DNA of 64,000 bases. Source: Pseudomonadota bacterium (lineage in GTDB: Bacteria > Pseudomonadota > Gammaproteobacteria > Steroidobacterales > Woeseiaceae). Below the pieces are notes generated by a model. The model was not told where the DNA came from. It ran no database searches and saw nothing but the letters and a program-made list of their open reading frames with translations. A program made the position numbers and the translations under genes. The stretch covers positions 1 through 64,000 of the forward strand of contig JAQCGO010000007.1 of assembly GCA_027618995.1 (NCBI GenBank). The letters run 5' to 3'. Positions 23,588 through 29,897 of this stretch are shown here, in pieces. The first letter of the stretch is position 1, and every line of letters begins with the position of its first letter.

Positions 23588-24487
23588 ATGAGTGCGAATT
23601 TAGAGACCTACCTTGACTGGCGTGACTACTACGAGCTGACCAAGCCGCGGGTCGTCATGCTGATCGTATTTACCGCGATCGTCGGCATGTTTCTGGCCGT
23701 ACCCGGCTGGCCCGGCGCGACCGCGCTGTTGTTTGGCACGCTGGGCATAGGTCTGGCCGCATCGTCGGCCGCCGTGTTCAACCACATTCTCGATGCGCGT
23801 ATTGATATACACATGCTGCGTACACGTGGCCGTCCACTGCCACAGGGTCGGGTCACCGAGCGCGCCGCGCTGCGCTTTGCGACCTTCCTCGGCGCAGTCT
23901 CAATGTTCATTTTGTGGTTCATCGTCAACCCGCTCACCGCTGTGCTGACGTTCGCCTCGCTGATTGGTTATGCGGTGGTGTACACGGTTTTTCTGAAACG
24001 CGCGACGCCGCAGAACATTGTCATCGGCGGTGCCGCCGGTGCCGCACCGCCCGTGCTCGGCTGGACAGCCGTGAGTGGCGAGGTGCACAGCAGCGCCTTG
24101 CTGTTATTCCTGATCATCTTTGTCTGGACGCCGCCGCACTTCTGGGCCCTCGCAATCGCTCGCAAGGACGAGTACGCCAAGGTTGGAATTCCGATGTTGC
24201 CGGTCACGCACGGCGAGGCGTACACGCGGCTTAATATTCTTTTCTATACGATCCTGCTCGTGCTGATTACGATCGTCCCGTACCTGACCGGCATGAGTGG
24301 TGTGATTTACCTTTGCGCCGCCCTCGTGCTCGATGTCACCTATCTCTATTACTCGATCCAGATGTGGCGTGACCCCGATGATCTCGAGCTGCCCATGAAA
24401 TCGTTCAAATTCTCGATTTCCTATCTGGGCTTCCTGTTTGCCGCCCTGTTGATCGATCATTACTTCCTGATCCAGATCAGCATCTAG
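23588..24487 (+). CDS. ctaB: Heme O synthase (protoheme IX farnesyltransferase)
   Basis: 299-aa UbiA-superfamily membrane enzyme that farnesylates heme b to heme O. The family motif appears as [22 protein letters not shown] near residue 60-80, with [17 protein letters not shown] and the [11 protein letters not shown] segment further on. It starts 10 nt after the preceding gene. The heme A synthase gene ctaA, which normally sits between them, is missing here. It is the last recognisable cox gene of the cluster. Confidence 0.95.
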
Positions 24488-24551
24488 TCCGGGCGAAACT
24501 GCCAACCGCATCCTTGTAGCCACGCGACTGCGCGCTACACTCGGCAGCATC

Positions 24552-25091
24552 ATGAGTGCCGCGGACAACAACCTGGCCTTCGAGCGACTGGTGCGACCGC
24601 ACTTCGACCGCCTGTACCGGCTGGCCTGGCGGCTGGCCGGCAGCAAAGCGGAAGCCGAGGACCTGTTCCAGGAGTTGCTGTTGAAAGCCTACGGGCAACT
24701 CGATCAGCTGGTGACCGTCGATCAGCCAGGCGCCTGGCTCAGCCGCGTAATGTACAACCTGTTTATCGATGAGCGGCGCCGTTTCAGAAGGCACCGCATG
24801 CGAACGGTGGAAGAGGGTGAGCTTCCCGGCGATGGCCTGGCTGGCATGGCCGGTTCCGGCGATCCGGCTATGGATAGCCAGCGATGGGAGACGATTCGCT
24901 GCCTGGACCGGGCCCTTGCAAAGCTCAGTGACGAGCACCGCGTGGTCGTCTTATTGCACGATACCGAGGGTTACAAAATTGAATAAATTCAAGAACTTAC
25001 CGGGATCCCGGTCGGAACGATCAAGTCGCGCCTGCACCGCGCCCGGGCGCGCCTGCGCGAGATACTCGAAAAAGATGGAACCCTTTCCTGA
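24552..25091 (+). pseudogene. ECF RNA polymerase sigma factor interrupted by an in-frame TAA
   Basis: The first ORF (24552-24983) has sigma region 2 (FERLVRPHFDRLYRLAWRL, EDLFQELLLKAYGQL, AWLSRVMYNLFIDERRRFRR) and the start of region 4 (LAKLSDEHRVVVLLHDTEGYKIE). It then stops at TAA (24984-24986). The same frame continues with IQELTGIPVGTIKSRLHRARARLREIL to TGA at 25089-25091, exactly the missing DNA-binding helix of region 4.2. One G-to-T change would restore GAA (Glu). As written, the protein lacks its -35 recognition helix. The anti-sigma candidate follows 35 nt later. Confidence 0.88.
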
Positions 25092-25126
25092 GCCCGGGCG
25101 TGTAAGGGATCAAGCAGGACAAAATC

Positions 25127-25690
25127 ATGCATAACGACGACCACAACGTACAACGCCAGGATCAGGACGATCCGCAGATCCAGGCACTGTTAAAGGACTA
25201 CCCGATGCCACATGCCACCACAGGTTTTTATGATCAGGCACTGGCCCGCGCAACCCACAAGGGCTCGCAACGGCAGCGCAATCGCTGGGTGTTGACCGGC
25301 TTCGGCAGCGCGGTCGCCGCGGGCCTCGCACTCTGGTTGCTTGGCAACACACTGCTGACCACGCCGGCACCATCGGTAACGAACGAGGCTCTGAGCGCGG
25401 CGATTCCGGGTATCAGCATGACGCTCGAAGAGCCGCGCACCGTCAACCTGGTATTTGCGTCCGCGGCCGCACTGGATGTTGCGACGCTTACGGTGACGCT
25501 GCCTGCCGGAGTTGAGCTCGCCGGCTTCCCGGGGCAAAGCGAGGTTAGCTGGGAAACAAGTCTTAGCGCCGGCCGAAATTTGCTGCCCCTGACGTTAATT
25601 GCACTGACACCTGTTGGTGGTGAGTTGCTGGCACGACTCGAACATGAGGATCGTGAGCGGCTGTTCCGCCTGCAAGTAAATATTTCTTAA
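25127..25690 (+). CDS. Putative membrane anti-sigma factor
   Basis: 187 aa. A polar, acidic N-terminus (about 50 residues; HNDDHNVQRQDQDDPQIQALL) would face the cytoplasm, one membrane helix follows (RWVLTGFGSAVAAGLALWLLG, about 53-75), and a periplasmic domain rich in beta strands (NLVFASAAALDVATLTVTLP) completes it. There is no zinc-binding HxxxCxxC motif. The function is inferred from position directly after an ECF sigma factor and from topology. No named family recognised with certainty. Confidence 0.65.
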   Translation: MHNDDHNVQRQDQDDPQIQALLKDYPMPHATTGFYDQALARATHKGSQRQRNRWVLTGFGSAVAAGLALWLLGNTLLTTPAPSVTNEALSAAIPGISMTLEEPRTVNLVFASAAALDVATLTVTLPAGVELAGFPGQSEVSWETSLSAGRNLLPLTLIALTPVGGELLARLEHEDRERLFRLQVNIS

Positions 25691-25703
25691 CCGGAGTACG
25701 ACC

Positions 25704-26159
25704 ATGAAACGAACTAAACTGTTTTTTGCGAGCCTGGCGCTGACATGGGCGGCGTTGCTGCCAGCCACCGCGACTGCGGGTGATCTCGACGACCTCGAGG
25801 TGACGATGGAAGTCGTTGACGACATCAACGACGTCGACGATGTCATCGCAGAGATGCGCGGCCCCGACGGCGATGGTGCCGATGAGAGTGACGACCGTGA
25901 AGACAGTGATGACCGCGAGGATGGTGGTGACCGCGAAGACGGCCGCGACGAGGATCACGACGGAGACGACGACCACGAGTCCGAGAAGGAGTTCGAGGAC
26001 CACGAAGATGATTTCTCCGAGGACGACGACTTCAACGAGGAAGATGAAGACTTCGGCGACGAGGACGACTTCGAGGAAGGCGAGGACGTCGACGATGATG
26101 AGCACGACGAGGAAGAGGAAGACGACGATGACATGGACGATGGGGCCGAGATAGACTAA
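25704..26159 (+). CDS. Extremely acidic exported protein (Asp/Glu-rich)
   Basis: 151 aa with a clear signal peptide (residues 1-26, MKRTKLFFASLALTWAALLP, cleavage near ATATAG). The mature chain starts with a short ordinary segment (DLDDLEVTMEVVDDINDVDDVIAEM) and then becomes an almost uninterrupted run of Asp and Glu with a few Gly, Arg, Phe and His. Early units repeat as DDREDSDDREDGGDREDG. Such chains are usually disordered and may bind calcium or other cations. RBS GGAG, start ATG, and a strong terminator right after the stop support a real gene. Function unknown. Confidence 0.8.
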   Translation: MKRTKLFFASLALTWAALLPATATAGDLDDLEVTMEVVDDINDVDDVIAEMRGPDGDGADESDDREDSDDREDGGDREDGRDEDHDGDDDHESEKEFEDHEDDFSEDDDFNEEDEDFGDEDDFEEGEDVDDDEHDEEEEDDDDMDDGAEID

Positions 26160-26175
26160 AACCCGCAAAAAGCCC

Positions 26176-26213
26176 AAAAACCCCCTGACTGTAACGCTCT
26201 CAGGGGGTTTTTT
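26176..26213 (+). terminator. Rho-independent terminator after the acidic-protein gene
   Basis: A 13-bp stem (26176-26188 with 26200-26212, core CCCCCTGA/TCAGGGGG), an 11-nt loop and six T (26208-26213). This is the best intrinsic terminator in the window. It ends the sigma/anti-sigma/acidic-protein transcript, so the TPR-barrel gene downstream probably has its own promoter. Confidence 0.9.
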
Positions 26214-26271
26214 ATGCGCCACGTCATAGTTTTGCCGGGCGAATTGTCGGTAACCTTACATCAGACATAAC

Positions 26272-27668
26272 GTGCATTTGGGAGCATGGGCCATTCGCAT
26301 AAGGAATTACATCAGGCAACGCAGGCTGAGACGCAGCGCTGCGACGCTGGCAGCGTGTTTGTTTCTCGTGCCGCTGCAAAGCCATGCGTTGACCGCAAGC
26401 GAAGTTTTCGCCGACGGCAATCGTTTGTTTCGCGACGACCTGTACTGGGCCGCGTTGCTGCGCTATCGCCAGGCCTACGAGGCCGGCATGGACACACCGT
26501 TACTGCACTACAACACGGGTGTTGCGCACTTCAAGGCTGAGCAGCACATCCGTGCACGCACTGCTTTGCTCAAGGCCGTGCAGGATCCCGGCTTGCGAGT
26601 CATTTCACAATACAATCTTGGTTTGAATGCGTATGCGGCCGGCAACGTTGACGAGGCGCTCAACTGGTTCCGCCAGGCGCGCGATCAGGAGCAAAGCAGC
26701 GAGATCAGGCGACTTGCGATCATCGCCATCGCCCGCTTGCAAAGCGAACGAATTGAAAATGATGAATTGCTCGTGCGTGTCGAGAAGCGCAAGGTTGAAC
26801 CGAAGTTCACGGACTTTGATCTCAAGGCCTTCGTCGGTTTCGGCACAGATGACAATGTGTATCGCACGCCCGGGCAGGACTATGTCGATTTCGCCGACCC
26901 GGCATTGCCGCTCGTCACCCCGGAGGTTGTCTCCGGCGCGTTCGTGCCGATCGATATGCAGCTCAAGTACCCAATTAACAGCCTCGAGTTCGAGTCCTTT
27001 TATGCGGCCTCCCGTGTAGCCGGCCGCATATACCAGGACGAAGAACTCGACAATGCCGACGAGTACAGCCATGAACTCAGCTTTGGCAGCTCCTACCGGC
27101 GCAAGGACATGAGTATTTCGTGTTCGCGGCACACGCCCAGTACGAGTTTACGCAAAGCTCTTTGTTGCGGCTCACCGTGGACAGGTACAGCCGGCGCTAC
27201 GGAGATCGGCCCGCGTTCGATCTGGACGGCACCCACGCTATTACCAACCCGACCGTGCGATACGACTATCTCGCGGTGGGCCTCACGGCGCGACAACGCA
27301 TCACGCAGAACATCTGGTTCGGCTTCAACATCGAGCTTACCGATCGCGAGGACCATTATCTCGGCTATAACGATTACAGGCGTGACGAAATTGGCGTTGA
27401 TTTCAGCTGGACACCGAGCCCGCGCTTTCGGTTCGAGGTATCCGGCTATTACCACAACTACGATTACCCCAACGCATTTGCTTTTCACAATCCCGTGACG
27501 GGGATCAAGACGCTCGAGACGGTGCGTAGCAACCTGCTCGCAGAGTTTCGCATGACGCCACACCTGAGCATCAGGGCCGAGGCCGAATTGCGCGAGTCCG
27601 TGTCGACCGATACTCGCATTGGCTACGATCGGAGCTGGTTCTCGCTCGGCGTGACCTGGCAGCAATAG
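26272..27668 (+). pseudogene. TPR plus outer-membrane beta-barrel protein, frameshifted
   Basis: The first frame (26272 onward, GTG start) gives a signal peptide ending QSHA, then TPR-like helices (about residues 40-150: FRDDLYWAALLRYRQAY, ALLKAVQDPGLRVISQYNLG, NVDEALNWFRQAR) and the first barrel strands (GFGTDDNVYRTPGQDYVDF). Near 27105 barrel-like sequence jumps to another frame, which continues (FVFAAHAQYEFTQSSLLRL) to the stop at 27668 with an aromatic-rich C-terminus (WFSLGVTWQQ). Adding one base around 27105 restores a single chain of about 465 aa. The layout resembles TPR-barrel proteins such as the Slam/DUF560 group; the substrate is unknown. Confidence 0.8.
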
Positions 27669-27670
27669 TC

Positions 27671-27692
27671 GCGGGCATGGCCCGCTCCCACA
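27671..27692 (+). repeat. Single REP-like unit
   Basis: GCGGGCATGGCCCGC (6-bp stem, 3-nt loop) followed by CTCCCACA, 2 nt after the stop of the frameshifted barrel gene. It shares GCATGGC and CTCCCAC with the inverted pair at 21970-22042, so it belongs to the same repeat family. Confidence 0.65.
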
Positions 27693-27734
27693 ATTTGCTA
27701 CCATTGCCGGCTCGATTGGCAAACCGGCTGGCAA

Positions 27735-29897
27735 ATGGACGTCACACCGATCCTCGACTCATTGAATGACGCGCAGCGGCAAGCCGTTACTGCGGTTGCC
27801 GGCCCTACTCTCGTTATTGCGGGTGCCGGTAGCGGCAAGACCCGCGTGCTGGTGCATCGGGCTGCGTGGCTGATTGATGTTGAGGGCGTCAGTCCGCAGG
27901 GCGTGCTGGCGGTAACCTTTACCAACAAAGCGGCCGCCGAGATGCGCGGCCGCATTGAAGCCTTGTTGAATATTCCGGTCAGGAACCTCTGGATTGGCAC
28001 CTTTCACGGCCTCGCGCACCGCCTGCTCCGCCGTCACTGGCGTGAAGCAGGGCTGCCGCAGAATTTTCAGATCATTGATTCGGACGACCAGCTTCGACTG
28101 ATAAAGCGCCTGCTTAAGAACCTTGAGATCGACGACAGCTGCTGGGTGCCGCGCGATATCCAGTATTTCATCAATGGCCAGAAAGACGAGGGTCTGCGCC
28201 CCAAACACCTGAACGACGAAGGCGATCCGAGCCGTCGCCAGATGATCGCGCTGTACCAGGCCTACGAAGACGTTTGCGAGCGCGGAGGCCTGGTCGATTT
28301 TGCCGAACTGCTGCTGCGCGCGCATGAGCTCTGGCGCGACAACGCGGACCTGCTCGCGCACTACCAGCGTCGTTTTTCGCACCTGCTGGTCGACGAGTTC
28401 CAGGACACCAACGCCATTCAGTATGCCTGGCTGCGACTGCTCGCCGGCAAGACCGGCATTCCGTTTGTCGTTGGCGATGACGACCAGTCGATCTATCGCT
28501 GGCGAGGCGCGCGGGTCGAACATATTTATCGCTTCCAGAAAGACTTTCCCGGCACCGCCGTGGTCAAGCTGGAGCAGAACTATCGCTCCACGGCGACGAT
28601 CCTGCATGCCGCGAATTCCGTGATCGAGAACAACAGCTCTCGGCTCGGCAAAAAACTCTGGACCGAGGGCGCGGACGGGGAGCCGATCCGTGTCTATGCC
28701 GCCTATAACGAGCGTGATGAATCCGACTTCATCATCGGCCGGCTGCGCGACTGGATCGATCAGGGCAATCTGCGCGCGGAGGCCGCTGTGCTGTATCGCT
28801 CGAATGCACAGTCACGAGTGCTGGAGGAGGGCCTGATCAATGCCGGCATACCCTATCGCGTGTACGGCGGCCTGCGCTTTTTCGAGCGAACGGAGATCAA
28901 GGACGCGCTGGCGTACCTGCGCCTGATTTCGAATCGCAATGACGACAGTTCCTTTGAGCGCGTATTGAACAAGCCGACGCGTGGCATCGGTGCACGCAGC
29001 GCCGATATGATTCGTGCTTACGCCCGCGCCAACGCCTGCCCGCTATGGCGCGCCGCTGGAGCTCTCGCCAGCGACGAATTTAATGGCCGCGCGGCCAATG
29101 CCGCCCACGAATTTCTGAACCTGATTGAAACCCTCGCGCGTGACACCGACGGACTCGACCTGCCCGGCAAGATCGACCATGTCATTCACGCCAGCGGTCT
29201 CATCGACTTTTTCCGCAAGGAGAAAGGTGAAAAGGGTGAGACCCGCATCGAGAACCTGCTGGAATTGGTCAGCGCTGGCGGCGGTTTCGAGCCCGATCCT
29301 GCCGCCGAGATGTCTCCGCTCGATGAGTTCTTGTCGCACGCGGCTCTCGAGGCCGGCGAAGGCCAGGCTGACGCCTGGGATGATTGTGTGCAGCTGATGA
29401 CGATGCACTCGGCCAAGGGCCTCGAATTTCCGCTGGTCTTCCTCTCCGGCATGGAAGACGGCCTGTTTCCACACCAGCGCTCTATTTCCGATCCAAAAGG
29501 GCTCGAGGAAGAGCGGCGGCTTTGTTATGTCGGCATCACTCGTGCGATGCAAACCCTGTACGTGACCTATGCAGAACAACGGCGCCTGCACGGTATGGAT
29601 AGTTTTTCGCAACCGTCGCGATTTGTCGCCGAGATTCCTGATCAGTACATCGAAGAGATTCGGCCGAAGGTACGGGTCTCGAGGCCGACGCGCGCGCCAA
29701 TCGTCGGCCGCACGCCCATCCGCCAGGGGTCGGAGGTCGGCATCCGGCTTGGCCAGCGTGTGCGTCATAAAAAATTCGGCGACGGTATTATTCTCAATTG
29801 CGAGGGCCAGGGAGCACATGCGCGGGTCCAGGTAAATTTTGAGGATGCGGGCACAAAATGGCTCGTTCTGAGCTATGCAAATCTCGATCTGATGTAA
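27735..29897 (+). CDS. uvrD: DNA helicase II UvrD
   Basis: 720-aa SF1A 3'-5' helicase of nucleotide excision and mismatch repair. Motif I AGAGSGKTRVLVHR near residue 30, GTFHGLAHRLLRRHW, DEFQDTN (motif II) near 222, GDDDQSIYRWRGA (motif III), LEQNYRST (IV), MTMHSAKGLEFP (V) and LCYVGITRAM (VI) are all present. The C-terminal tail with VRHKKFGDG and NFEDAGTKWLVLSYANL matches the UvrD Tudor-like end rather than Rep. trkA starts 10 nt later. Confidence 0.96.
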   Translation: MDVTPILDSLNDAQRQAVTAVAGPTLVIAGAGSGKTRVLVHRAAWLIDVEGVSPQGVLAVTFTNKAAAEMRGRIEALLNIPVRNLWIGTFHGLAHRLLRRHWREAGLPQNFQIIDSDDQLRLIKRLLKNLEIDDSCWVPRDIQYFINGQKDEGLRPKHLNDEGDPSRRQMIALYQAYEDVCERGGLVDFAELLLRAHELWRDNADLLAHYQRRFSHLLVDEFQDTNAIQYAWLRLLAGKTGIPFVVGDDDQSIYRWRGARVEHIYRFQKDFPGTAVVKLEQNYRSTATILHAANSVIENNSSRLGKKLWTEGADGEPIRVYAAYNERDESDFIIGRLRDWIDQGNLRAEAAVLYRSNAQSRVLEEGLINAGIPYRVYGGLRFFERTEIKDALAYLRLISNRNDDSSFERVLNKPTRGIGARSADMIRAYARANACPLWRAAGALASDEFNGRAANAAHEFLNLIETLARDTDGLDLPGKIDHVIHASGLIDFFRKEKGEKGETRIENLLELVSAGGGFEPDPAAEMSPLDEFLSHAALEAGEGQADAWDDCVQLMTMHSAKGLEFPLVFLSGMEDGLFPHQRSISDPKGLEEERRLCYVGITRAMQTLYVTYAEQRRLHGMDSFSQPSRFVAEIPDQYIEEIRPKVRVSRPTRAPIVGRTPIRQGSEVGIRLGQRVRHKKFGDGIILNCEGQGAHARVQVNFEDAGTKWLVLSYANLDLM

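What the first reader, a model, noticed from the sequence alone, without database searches (positions are those of the whole stretch)
24552..27668. Candidate undescribed locus: ECF sigma, membrane anti-sigma, hyperacidic exported protein, TPR-barrel outer-membrane protein
Between the cox cluster and uvrD, four genes read in one direction: an ECF sigma factor, a one-helix anti-sigma candidate, an exported protein that is mostly Asp/Glu, and a TPR plus beta-barrel protein. The first three share a transcript ended by a strong terminator; the fourth follows 60 nt later. A plausible reading is an envelope or cation-sensing module in which the acidic chain binds calcium or other cations and the barrel exports or displays it. 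The association is seen; the function is inference.
Basis: partly seen in the sequence, partly recalled or inferred. Interest (0 to 1): 0.75.

Follow-up and report, generated by a model that had tools for sequence, protein, structure and literature searches.

The report
Widespread operon for disordered exported protein
A four-gene unit, first seen in a marine-sediment bacterium, recurs across many gammaproteobacteria: a gene switch, its membrane brake, a small exported protein with a fixed head and a wildly variable charged tail, and an outer-membrane barrel that may export or hold it.

Summary
The four genes are really there, between ctaB and uvrD of a Woeseiaceae genome. In this assembly the sigma gene has an in-frame stop and the barrel gene a frameshift; relatives have intact copies. 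The association is not chance. All four genes occur together in 69 of 80 named loci (4 more are cut by contig ends; 7 lack sigma and anti-sigma). In 40 loci from 26 families of Gammaproteobacteria, found through the anti-sigma gene, sigma is present in 39, gene 3 in 40 and a barrel in 39. The constant part is gene 3 plus barrel: 78 of 78 Woeseiaceae-type loci that reach upstream, including the seven without the sigma pair.

Acidity is not the family trait. Gene 3 is an exported protein with a conserved head of about 30 residues and a hypervariable, low-complexity, mostly charged tail; poly-Asp/Glu is the Woeseiaceae form.

Best reading: the TPR-barrel is a dedicated outer-membrane exporter or anchor for gene 3, with the sigma pair as a separable switch. 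Shown: anatomy, conservation, core pair. Inferred: disorder, export, signalling. Calcium binding was not tested. Nine literature searches listed no description.

The parts
24514..24541 (+). possible promoter of the sigma operon (TTGTAG - 16 nt - TACACT)
   Evidence: read; the dyad CTTGT-N18-TACA occurs upstream of sigma in 16 of 69 Woeseiaceae-type loci, commonest dyad in the shuffled set 4 of 69; weak, as the loci are related
24552..25091 (+). ECF-type sigma factor gene, interrupted in this assembly by an in-frame TAA at 24984-24986
   Evidence: no stop at this place in the relatives printed (L068 gave no line)
25127..25690 (+). membrane anti-sigma candidate: short N-terminal part without zinc-finger motif, hydrophobic helix, beta-sandwich domain (residues 94-187)
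25704..26159 (+). gene 3: exported protein with conserved head (DDLEVTMEVVDD...IAEMRGPD), acidic low-complexity middle and conserved C-terminal stretch (DDFEEGEDVDDD)
26176..26212 (+). intrinsic terminator after gene 3
   Evidence: z -4.2; a hairpin with T tail in 53 of 69 related intergenic regions
26219..26256 (+). conserved non-coding element, possible promoter of the barrel gene (CCACGTCATAGTTTT-N17-TAACCT)
   Evidence: 18-mer with at most 4 mismatches in 59 of 68 related intergenic regions against 0 of 68 shuffled; found in 6 of 7 loci without sigma; the strict pattern has one match in this genome, this one
26272..27668 (+). TPR plus outer-membrane beta-barrel gene, broken by a frameshift near 27115 in this assembly
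   Evidence: one open frame in 78 of 80 related loci, the other two cut by contig ends; model of the homologue in L075

Best explanation
Gene 3 and gene 4 are a cargo and its dedicated outer-membrane machine. Gene 3 is exported to the periplasm, stays largely unfolded, and is recognised by its short conserved head, which looks like two beta-strand segments. The TPR domain of gene 4 or the beta-sandwich domain of the anti-sigma factor binds the head, and the barrel passes the charged tail to the cell surface, or holds it there. The sigma/anti-sigma pair switches expression; the barrel has a conserved upstream element of its own that persists where the sigma pair is lost. SHOWN: gene content, order, conservation, head motif, the core pair surviving loss of the sigma pair, predicted TPR plus 16-strand barrel. 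INFERRED: that gene 3 is disordered, that the barrel moves or holds it, which domain reads the head, what the sigma factor transcribes, what signal releases it, and what the tail does outside.
For: Gene 3 lies upstream of the barrel in 78 of 78 Woeseiaceae-type loci with upstream sequence and downstream of the anti-sigma gene in 40 of 40 loci from 26 families (30 by pattern, 10 by reading, of which L199 only loosely fits; the pattern hits 5 of 800 other ORFs). Seven genomes in which the anti-sigma protein was not found, by a query that rang in 28 of 36 same-genus genomes, keep gene 3 and barrel. Barrel-anchored search: L221 and L223 have gene 3 and a strong barrel with no sigma or anti-sigma in the 3.2 kb upstream. 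The barrel model has TPRs and 16 strands at mean pLDDT 90; Foldseek ranks the cellulose exporter BcsC first, E 1.0e-10, almost tied with FadL, 1.5e-10; the exopolysaccharide exporter PelBC is among the VIA rows at Z 18.4. PF04575 (Slam/T11SS barrel) is matched at E <= 0.01 by 1 of 51 and 5 of 34 members. A second small exported ORF of the same kind lies next to gene 3 in L188 and L216.
Against: No direct evidence of export. Most barrels do not match PF04575. TM-scores to BcsC are low (0.35), FadL and porins score as well in Foldseek, porins lead the VIA list (Z up to 19.9) and BcsC is not among its 50 rows; so the fold does not show export. T11SS cargo with known structure have a C-terminal 8-stranded barrel (PMC8406197, PMC12282271, passages), which gene 3 shows no sign of. 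Tail charge and barrel charge do not correlate (rho 0.004 in 69 Woeseiaceae-type, -0.15 in 26 wide loci). Distance-matrix coevolution in 54 loci does not single out a partner for the head (partial r 0.24 anti-sigma, 0.19 barrel, 0.18 TPR, 0.16 sigma). L215 has sigma, anti-sigma and gene 3 but no barrel nearby, and in L213 other genes lie between gene 3 and barrel. L222, with 510 nt upstream of a strong barrel, shows no gene 3. No ECF-type promoter was found upstream of the sigma genes.
Confidence: 0.45

Rival explanations
1. Sensor reading: gene 3 and the barrel are the input of the sigma switch. The charged tail threads into or across the barrel and reads the state of the surface (cations, polycations, damage); when it is displaced, the head binds the beta-sandwich domain of the anti-sigma factor and releases sigma. 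It would work like RcsF threaded through outer-membrane barrels (recalled), but feeding an ECF factor.
For: Each of the 40 wide anti-sigma loci read has gene 3 beside it. The anti-sigma protein carries a conserved beta-sandwich domain (block pLDDT 87-96) able in principle to pair with a short strand such as DVTMEV. The head-to-anti-sigma partial correlation is nominally the highest (0.24), but not distinct.
Against: Gene 3 and barrel persist in seven genomes where no close anti-sigma relative was found, so they probably do something besides signalling to it. The barrel's upstream element persists there too (6 of 7).
Confidence: 0.25
2. Other-cargo reading: the barrel exports or imports something else (a polysaccharide or a solute such as a fatty acid) and gene 3 is a periplasmic polyelectrolyte accessory, for example a chaperone or ion buffer.
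For: Foldseek's best matches are BcsC and FadL, with AlgE, porins and PelBC below; PF10082 (putative porin 2) is matched by 26 of 51 and 23 of 34 members; PelB_C is matched by the barrel of L066 (2.1e-4, below its cut-off).
Against: The flanking genes I searched for and found around the Woeseiaceae-type loci are ctaB, uvrD and trkA; I saw no polysaccharide synthase, but made no full annotation. A fixed partner with a conserved head is unusual for a general porin (general knowledge).
Confidence: 0.2
3. Neighbourhood without joint function: an old operon kept together by position, with gene 3 a low-complexity filler.
For: Gene 3 middle and tail are hypervariable and low in complexity.
Against: Conserved order in 26 families and a conserved head and C-terminal stretch in an otherwise free sequence.
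Confidence: 0.04

Closest known systems
Type 11 secretion system (Slam/NilB/HrpB, PF04575)
   Same: N-terminal TPR domain plus outer-membrane barrel encoded beside an exported partner protein; PF04575 matches in a minority of members
   Different: 16 strands in the Woeseiaceae model against 14 for T11SS (PMC8406197, passage); gene 3 shows no C-terminal 8-stranded barrel; sigma/anti-sigma pair in the operon, while the word sigma has no occurrence in the main text of both T11SS papers
TPR-barrel exopolysaccharide exporters (BcsC, PgaA, PelB)
   Same: TPRs plus a 16-strand barrel; BcsC ranks first in Foldseek, nearly tied with FadL; PelBC is among the VIA rows (Z 18.4)
   Different: fewer TPRs than BcsC or PelB (recalled for those two); no polysaccharide synthase noticed among the neighbours; small exported protein as constant partner
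ECF sigma / zinc-finger (ZAS) anti-sigma pairs
   Same: sigma2-sigma4 factor followed by a candidate one-helix membrane protein; zf-HC2 in 14 of 34 aligned members
   Different: the window's own anti-sigma has no zinc-finger match and carries a beta-sandwich domain
Cell-surface signalling systems (FecA-FecR-FecI type; recalled)
   Same: outer-membrane barrel, membrane anti-sigma and ECF sigma encoded together
   Different: 16-strand TPR barrel, not a 22-strand plugged TonB receptor; extra gene 3

Membership tests
ECF sigma factors | sigma region 2 and region 4 only, about 180 aa | tested here: met
   Sigma70_r2 2.1e-13 and Sigma70_r4_2 5.9e-17 in 179 aa, read through the in-frame stop
ZAS-type anti-sigma factors | cytoplasmic zinc-finger domain (zf-HC2) | tested here: not met
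   no match in the window protein; present in 14 of 34 aligned members and in the two diverged loci scanned, L063 and L066
ZAS-type anti-sigma factors | binds and inhibits its sigma factor | not testable with these tools
   only gene order and the highest distance correlation between two separate genes, partial r 0.57
Type 11 secretion system | PF04575 barrel | tested here: inconclusive
   no match in the window pieces; 1 of 51 Woeseiaceae-type and 5 of 34 wide members at E <= 0.01
Type 11 secretion system | 14-strand barrel | tested here: not met
   16 strands in the model of the L075 homologue; barrels of other families were not modelled
Type 11 secretion system | N-terminal TPR domain | tested here: met
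Type 11 secretion system | cargo with C-terminal 8-stranded beta-barrel | tested here: not met
   gene 3 has no Pfam or NCBIfam match and a low-complexity charged C-terminus; it was not modelled
BcsC/PgaA/PelB exporters | TPRs plus 16-strand barrel | tested here: met
   similarity to BcsC and PelBC, not distinct from FadL and porins
BcsC/PgaA/PelB exporters | encoded with a polysaccharide synthase | tested here: inconclusive
   flanks searched only for ctaB, uvrD and trkA; no full annotation made
FecIRA-type cell-surface signalling | 22-strand TonB-dependent receptor with plug | tested here: not met
   16 strands and no such family among those listed for 51 members

The most novel reading that the evidence does not exclude
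An undescribed surface system spread over many gammaproteobacterial families: a dedicated TPR-barrel displays or secretes hypervariable, disordered polyelectrolyte proteins recognised by a short beta-strand head, and the same head reports export status to an ECF switch through the anti-sigma beta-sandwich domain. It would be a secretion route whose cargo needs no folded targeting domain.
Probability: 0.25. Interest if true: 0.82.

Novelty: new variant of a known kind. Interest (0 to 1): 0.63.

Why it matters
If right, an undescribed envelope system exists in many gammaproteobacterial families, including the Woeseiaceae, a group described as globally distributed in marine sediments (PMC7451513, start of abstract in the search listing). 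It couples an ECF switch to a fast-evolving protein that may form part of the cell surface. It also offers a clean test of whether TPR-barrel proteins can move cargo with no folded targeting domain; one T11SS paper raises the possibility of unknown targeting domains for its cluster 3 (PMC12282271, passages).

Tried and rejected
Acidity as the family trait: rejected; tails vary from acidic to mixed charge or Pro/Arg-rich. Chance neighbourhood: rejected. Old pseudogene operon: not supported; window versus L075 dN/dS is about 0.10-0.12 for sigma and both barrel pieces, against 0.15 for the anti-sigma gene and 0.04 for uvrD, with dS near 1, so the two lesions are recent or assembly errors; reads were not available. 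Charge matching of tail and barrel: no correlation; lumen estimate from strand parity near neutral, 21 K+R against 18 D+E. Coevolution by distance matrices: no partner of the head singled out. ECF autoregulation: GGAAC-type promoter upstream of 0 of 37 wide sigma genes, 1.6 expected; three other patterns also near expectation. Barrel element as target of this sigma: not supported, as it persists without sigma. Rfam on 24300-27900: no match. Plasmid records, one wide barrel as query, for a named host outside Woeseiaceae: no match.

Frequency: the class draw gave 44 of 370 genomes, but a phylum draw with the same profile at E <= 1e-8 gave only 4 of 299, the window's own included, the other three from one genus of the same class. 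The share therefore depends on the draw; the make-up of the phylum draw was not shown in full, so absence from other classes is not claimed. Two weak anti-sigma matches, L069 and L070, show no module. A Woeseiaceae-head profile of 28 residues finds gene 3 in only 6 of 40 wide loci at E < 1; of its 12 best hits among 1864 ORFs, 9 lie at gene 3 and two more (L196, L217) are longer frames that by their coordinates end there; one is unrelated. PDB sequence search with the barrel profile: the 60 rows shown of 91 are TPR proteins or matches to the TPR part. BcsC is not among the 50 VIA rows. A paper on Woeseiales transcripts mentions an ECF factor called SigV at one site (PMC7451513, passage); whether it is this gene is unknown.
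Full report
Where it is. The window belongs to a 2.54 Mb, 97% complete draft genome in 76 contigs. The related records returned by a named genome scan are mostly titled Woeseiaceae, Woeseia, Gammaproteobacteria or Proteobacteria, so I take the host to be a Woeseiaceae bacterium; this is inferred. The locus lies between ctaB (23588-24487) and uvrD (27735-29897), followed by trkA (gene names are mine from the sequences).

What is in the window. Sigma gene 24552-25091: sigma regions 2 and 4, with an in-frame TAA at 24984-24986 that removes the second half of region 4. Anti-sigma candidate 25127-25690: helices at 14-23, 34-51 and 64-74, the last in low-confidence surroundings, and a beta-sandwich at about 94-187 (block means of pLDDT 87-96), which VIA aligns best to beta-sandwich domains of complement proteins, protein 4.2 and transglutaminases (Z up to 10.0, rmsd 2.3, 92 residues). 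That is a common kind of fold and says nothing of function. Gene 3, 25704-26159: 151 aa, 50% Asp+Glu. A strong terminator follows. Then come a conserved element (26219-26256) and the barrel gene, whose C-terminal two-fifths are in another frame. Neighbouring ctaB, uvrD and trkA are full-length ORFs. Related barrels are single open frames in 78 of 80 loci, the other two being cut by contig ends. dN/dS of the broken genes against L075 is 0.10-0.12, so the lesions are recent or are assembly errors. I could not decide between these.

Is the association real? Step 1, same genus: the anti-sigma protein was found in 28 of 36 same-genus relatives and 3 of 23 genomes of the same order. In 26 of 26 long regions around the close matches, sigma, anti-sigma, an acidic ORF, TPR-barrel and uvrD occur in that order. 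Step 2, named loci found with the barrel alone (best 80 of 93): all four genes in 69 of 80 (68 by script, L150). Two loci (L085, L147) are cut to the barrel, two (L120, L134) are partly cut, and seven (L098, L104, L121, L122, L124, L133, L141) lack sigma and anti-sigma. Gene 3 is present in all 78 with upstream sequence (in L133 about 0.6 kb before the barrel). The seven genomes gave no match to the window anti-sigma and with the profile only two marginal ones, E 9e-4 and 4e-3; their completeness was not told. Step 3, the class, searched with the anti-sigma profile: 44 of 370 Gammaproteobacteria genomes match at E <= 1e-4, some of them weakly. I fetched 40 loci, from 39 genomes and 26 families, 25 of them other than the window's own. 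Sigma lies upstream in 39; in the fortieth, L203, the anti-sigma gene sits at a contig end. A small exported protein with the head motif lies downstream in 40: 30 by a pattern, 8 more by reading, 2 more by reading (L199 only loosely). The pattern hits 5 of 800 other ORFs of the same loci. A TPR-barrel follows in 38 by profile (in L213 after intervening genes); L191 has a TPR-less barrel, seen by reading; L215 has none nearby. Two further loci from a phylum draw, L237 and L238, also have all four. That draw gave only 4 of 299 genomes, so frequency depends on the sample. Step 4, the reverse search with the wide barrel profile: 53 of 370 genomes at E <= 1e-15. I read 16 barrel regions from it. 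L230 and L236 have the whole module. Of six strong barrels without an anti-sigma match, L221 and L223 have gene 3 and no sigma or anti-sigma in the 3.2 kb upstream; L224 has gene 3, then the contig ends; L222 shows no gene 3 in its 510 nt of upstream sequence; L226 starts 40 nt into its contig; L225 has a masked stretch upstream. Eight weak barrels (L227-L229, L231-L235, E above 1e-35) showed no gene 3 by pattern, L227 having almost no upstream sequence; I take them for other TPR-barrels.

What gene 3 is. In Woeseiaceae-type loci the head is strongly conserved: of 61 aligned, V at position 0 in 58, T in 57, M in 56, V at position 4 in 54, then M in 56, G in 56 and P in 55 (rows without the anchor pattern were dropped, 61 of 69 kept, so these counts lean towards the pattern). 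The middle varies in length and composition; a C-terminal stretch of the type DFEEGEDVDEDxFDE recurs in many. In L121 and L124 the protein is much less acidic but keeps both ends. In other families the head reads like DDVTIQVIES...IELP, and the tails are repeats such as SMDDREDS, DDAQDEK or NDSRDDA, or Pro/Arg-rich runs. So the defining feature is the head plus a hypervariable polar tail. Disorder is inferred from composition only; gene 3 was not modelled. Homology of the heads across families rests on position, pattern and a modest profile test (6 of 40 loci at E < 1, 9 of the 12 best hits at gene 3).

What the barrel is. The L075 homologue (80% and 82% identical to the two window pieces) was modelled at mean pLDDT 90: TPR helices at 42-162 and 16 strands at 180-545. 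Foldseek ranks BcsC first (E 1.0e-10, TM-score 0.35), nearly tied with FadL (1.5e-10), with porins, AlgE and PelBC below; VIA lists porins first (Z up to 19.9) and PelBC at 18.4, BcsC not among the 50 rows. So the fold fits a TPR-barrel exporter but does not prove one. Pfam at E <= 0.01: PF10082 in 26 of 51 Woeseiaceae-type and 23 of 34 wide members; PF04575 (Slam/T11SS) in 1 of 51 and 5 of 34.

Regulation. A hairpin with T tail lies between gene 3 and the barrel in 53 of 69 loci, and an 18-mer element in 59 of 68 against 0 of 68 shuffled. The element is found in 6 of 7 loci without sigma (no shuffled control in that call), so it is unlikely to depend on this sigma factor. A strict form of it had 4 matches in 16 genomes: three lie in this locus (G000, G005, G008), and the fourth, in G007, is identical to the site in L104. 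It therefore looks private to the barrel gene. No ECF-type promoter was found upstream of the sigma genes. The sigma regulon is unknown.

Mechanism. I commit to a cargo/exporter pair under a separable sigma switch (0.45). A sensor role for the same parts (0.25) and a barrel serving another cargo (0.2) remain open. The steps shown and inferred are marked under best explanation. Results against: no charge matching, no distinct coevolution partner, little PF04575 support, no sign of a C-terminal barrel in gene 3, a fold not distinct from porins.

Known or not. Nine searches of the paper library (lists capped at 8 to 20 rows) listed no description of this operon. The two T11SS papers (abstract and passages) do not use the word sigma in their main text. 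An ECF review (passages) has one mention of TPRs, as an extension of sigma factors themselves. The library lacks most subscription papers and all bioRxiv preprints. The large ECF reclassification paper (recalled) was not read, so this sigma group may already have a number there.

Noticed in passing
window 26219-26256; L071-L150 upstream of the barrel: A long conserved non-coding element sits between gene 3 and the barrel, with 16-17 nt between its two blocks in the copies I compared, and persists where the sigma pair is lost.
   Followed up: partly
L076, L077, L080, L081, L130 (sigma genes; also L033, L039, L041, L043): The sigma frame has no ATG, GTG or TTG between the preceding stop and the conserved start of the protein (113-aa ORF only); another start codon may be used.
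   Followed up: no
G026:C33, G026:C29, G031:C39, G016:C68, G034:C103, G014:C2 (L060, L062-L064, L067, L068): Several same-genus genomes hold a second or third, diverged copy of the module, with Ser-Asp-Glu repeats or an Arg/Pro-rich gene 3.
   Followed up: partly
L188 and L216: A second small exported ORF of the gene 3 kind lies next to gene 3.
   Followed up: no
L052 / L089, gene 3: The acidic tail contains a run of N in the record (X in the translation), so such tails may be hard to assemble.
   Followed up: no
window 24984-24986 and near 27115: Two lesions within 2.2 kb of one operon, not seen in the relatives examined, while selection on the pieces looks normal.
   Followed up: partly
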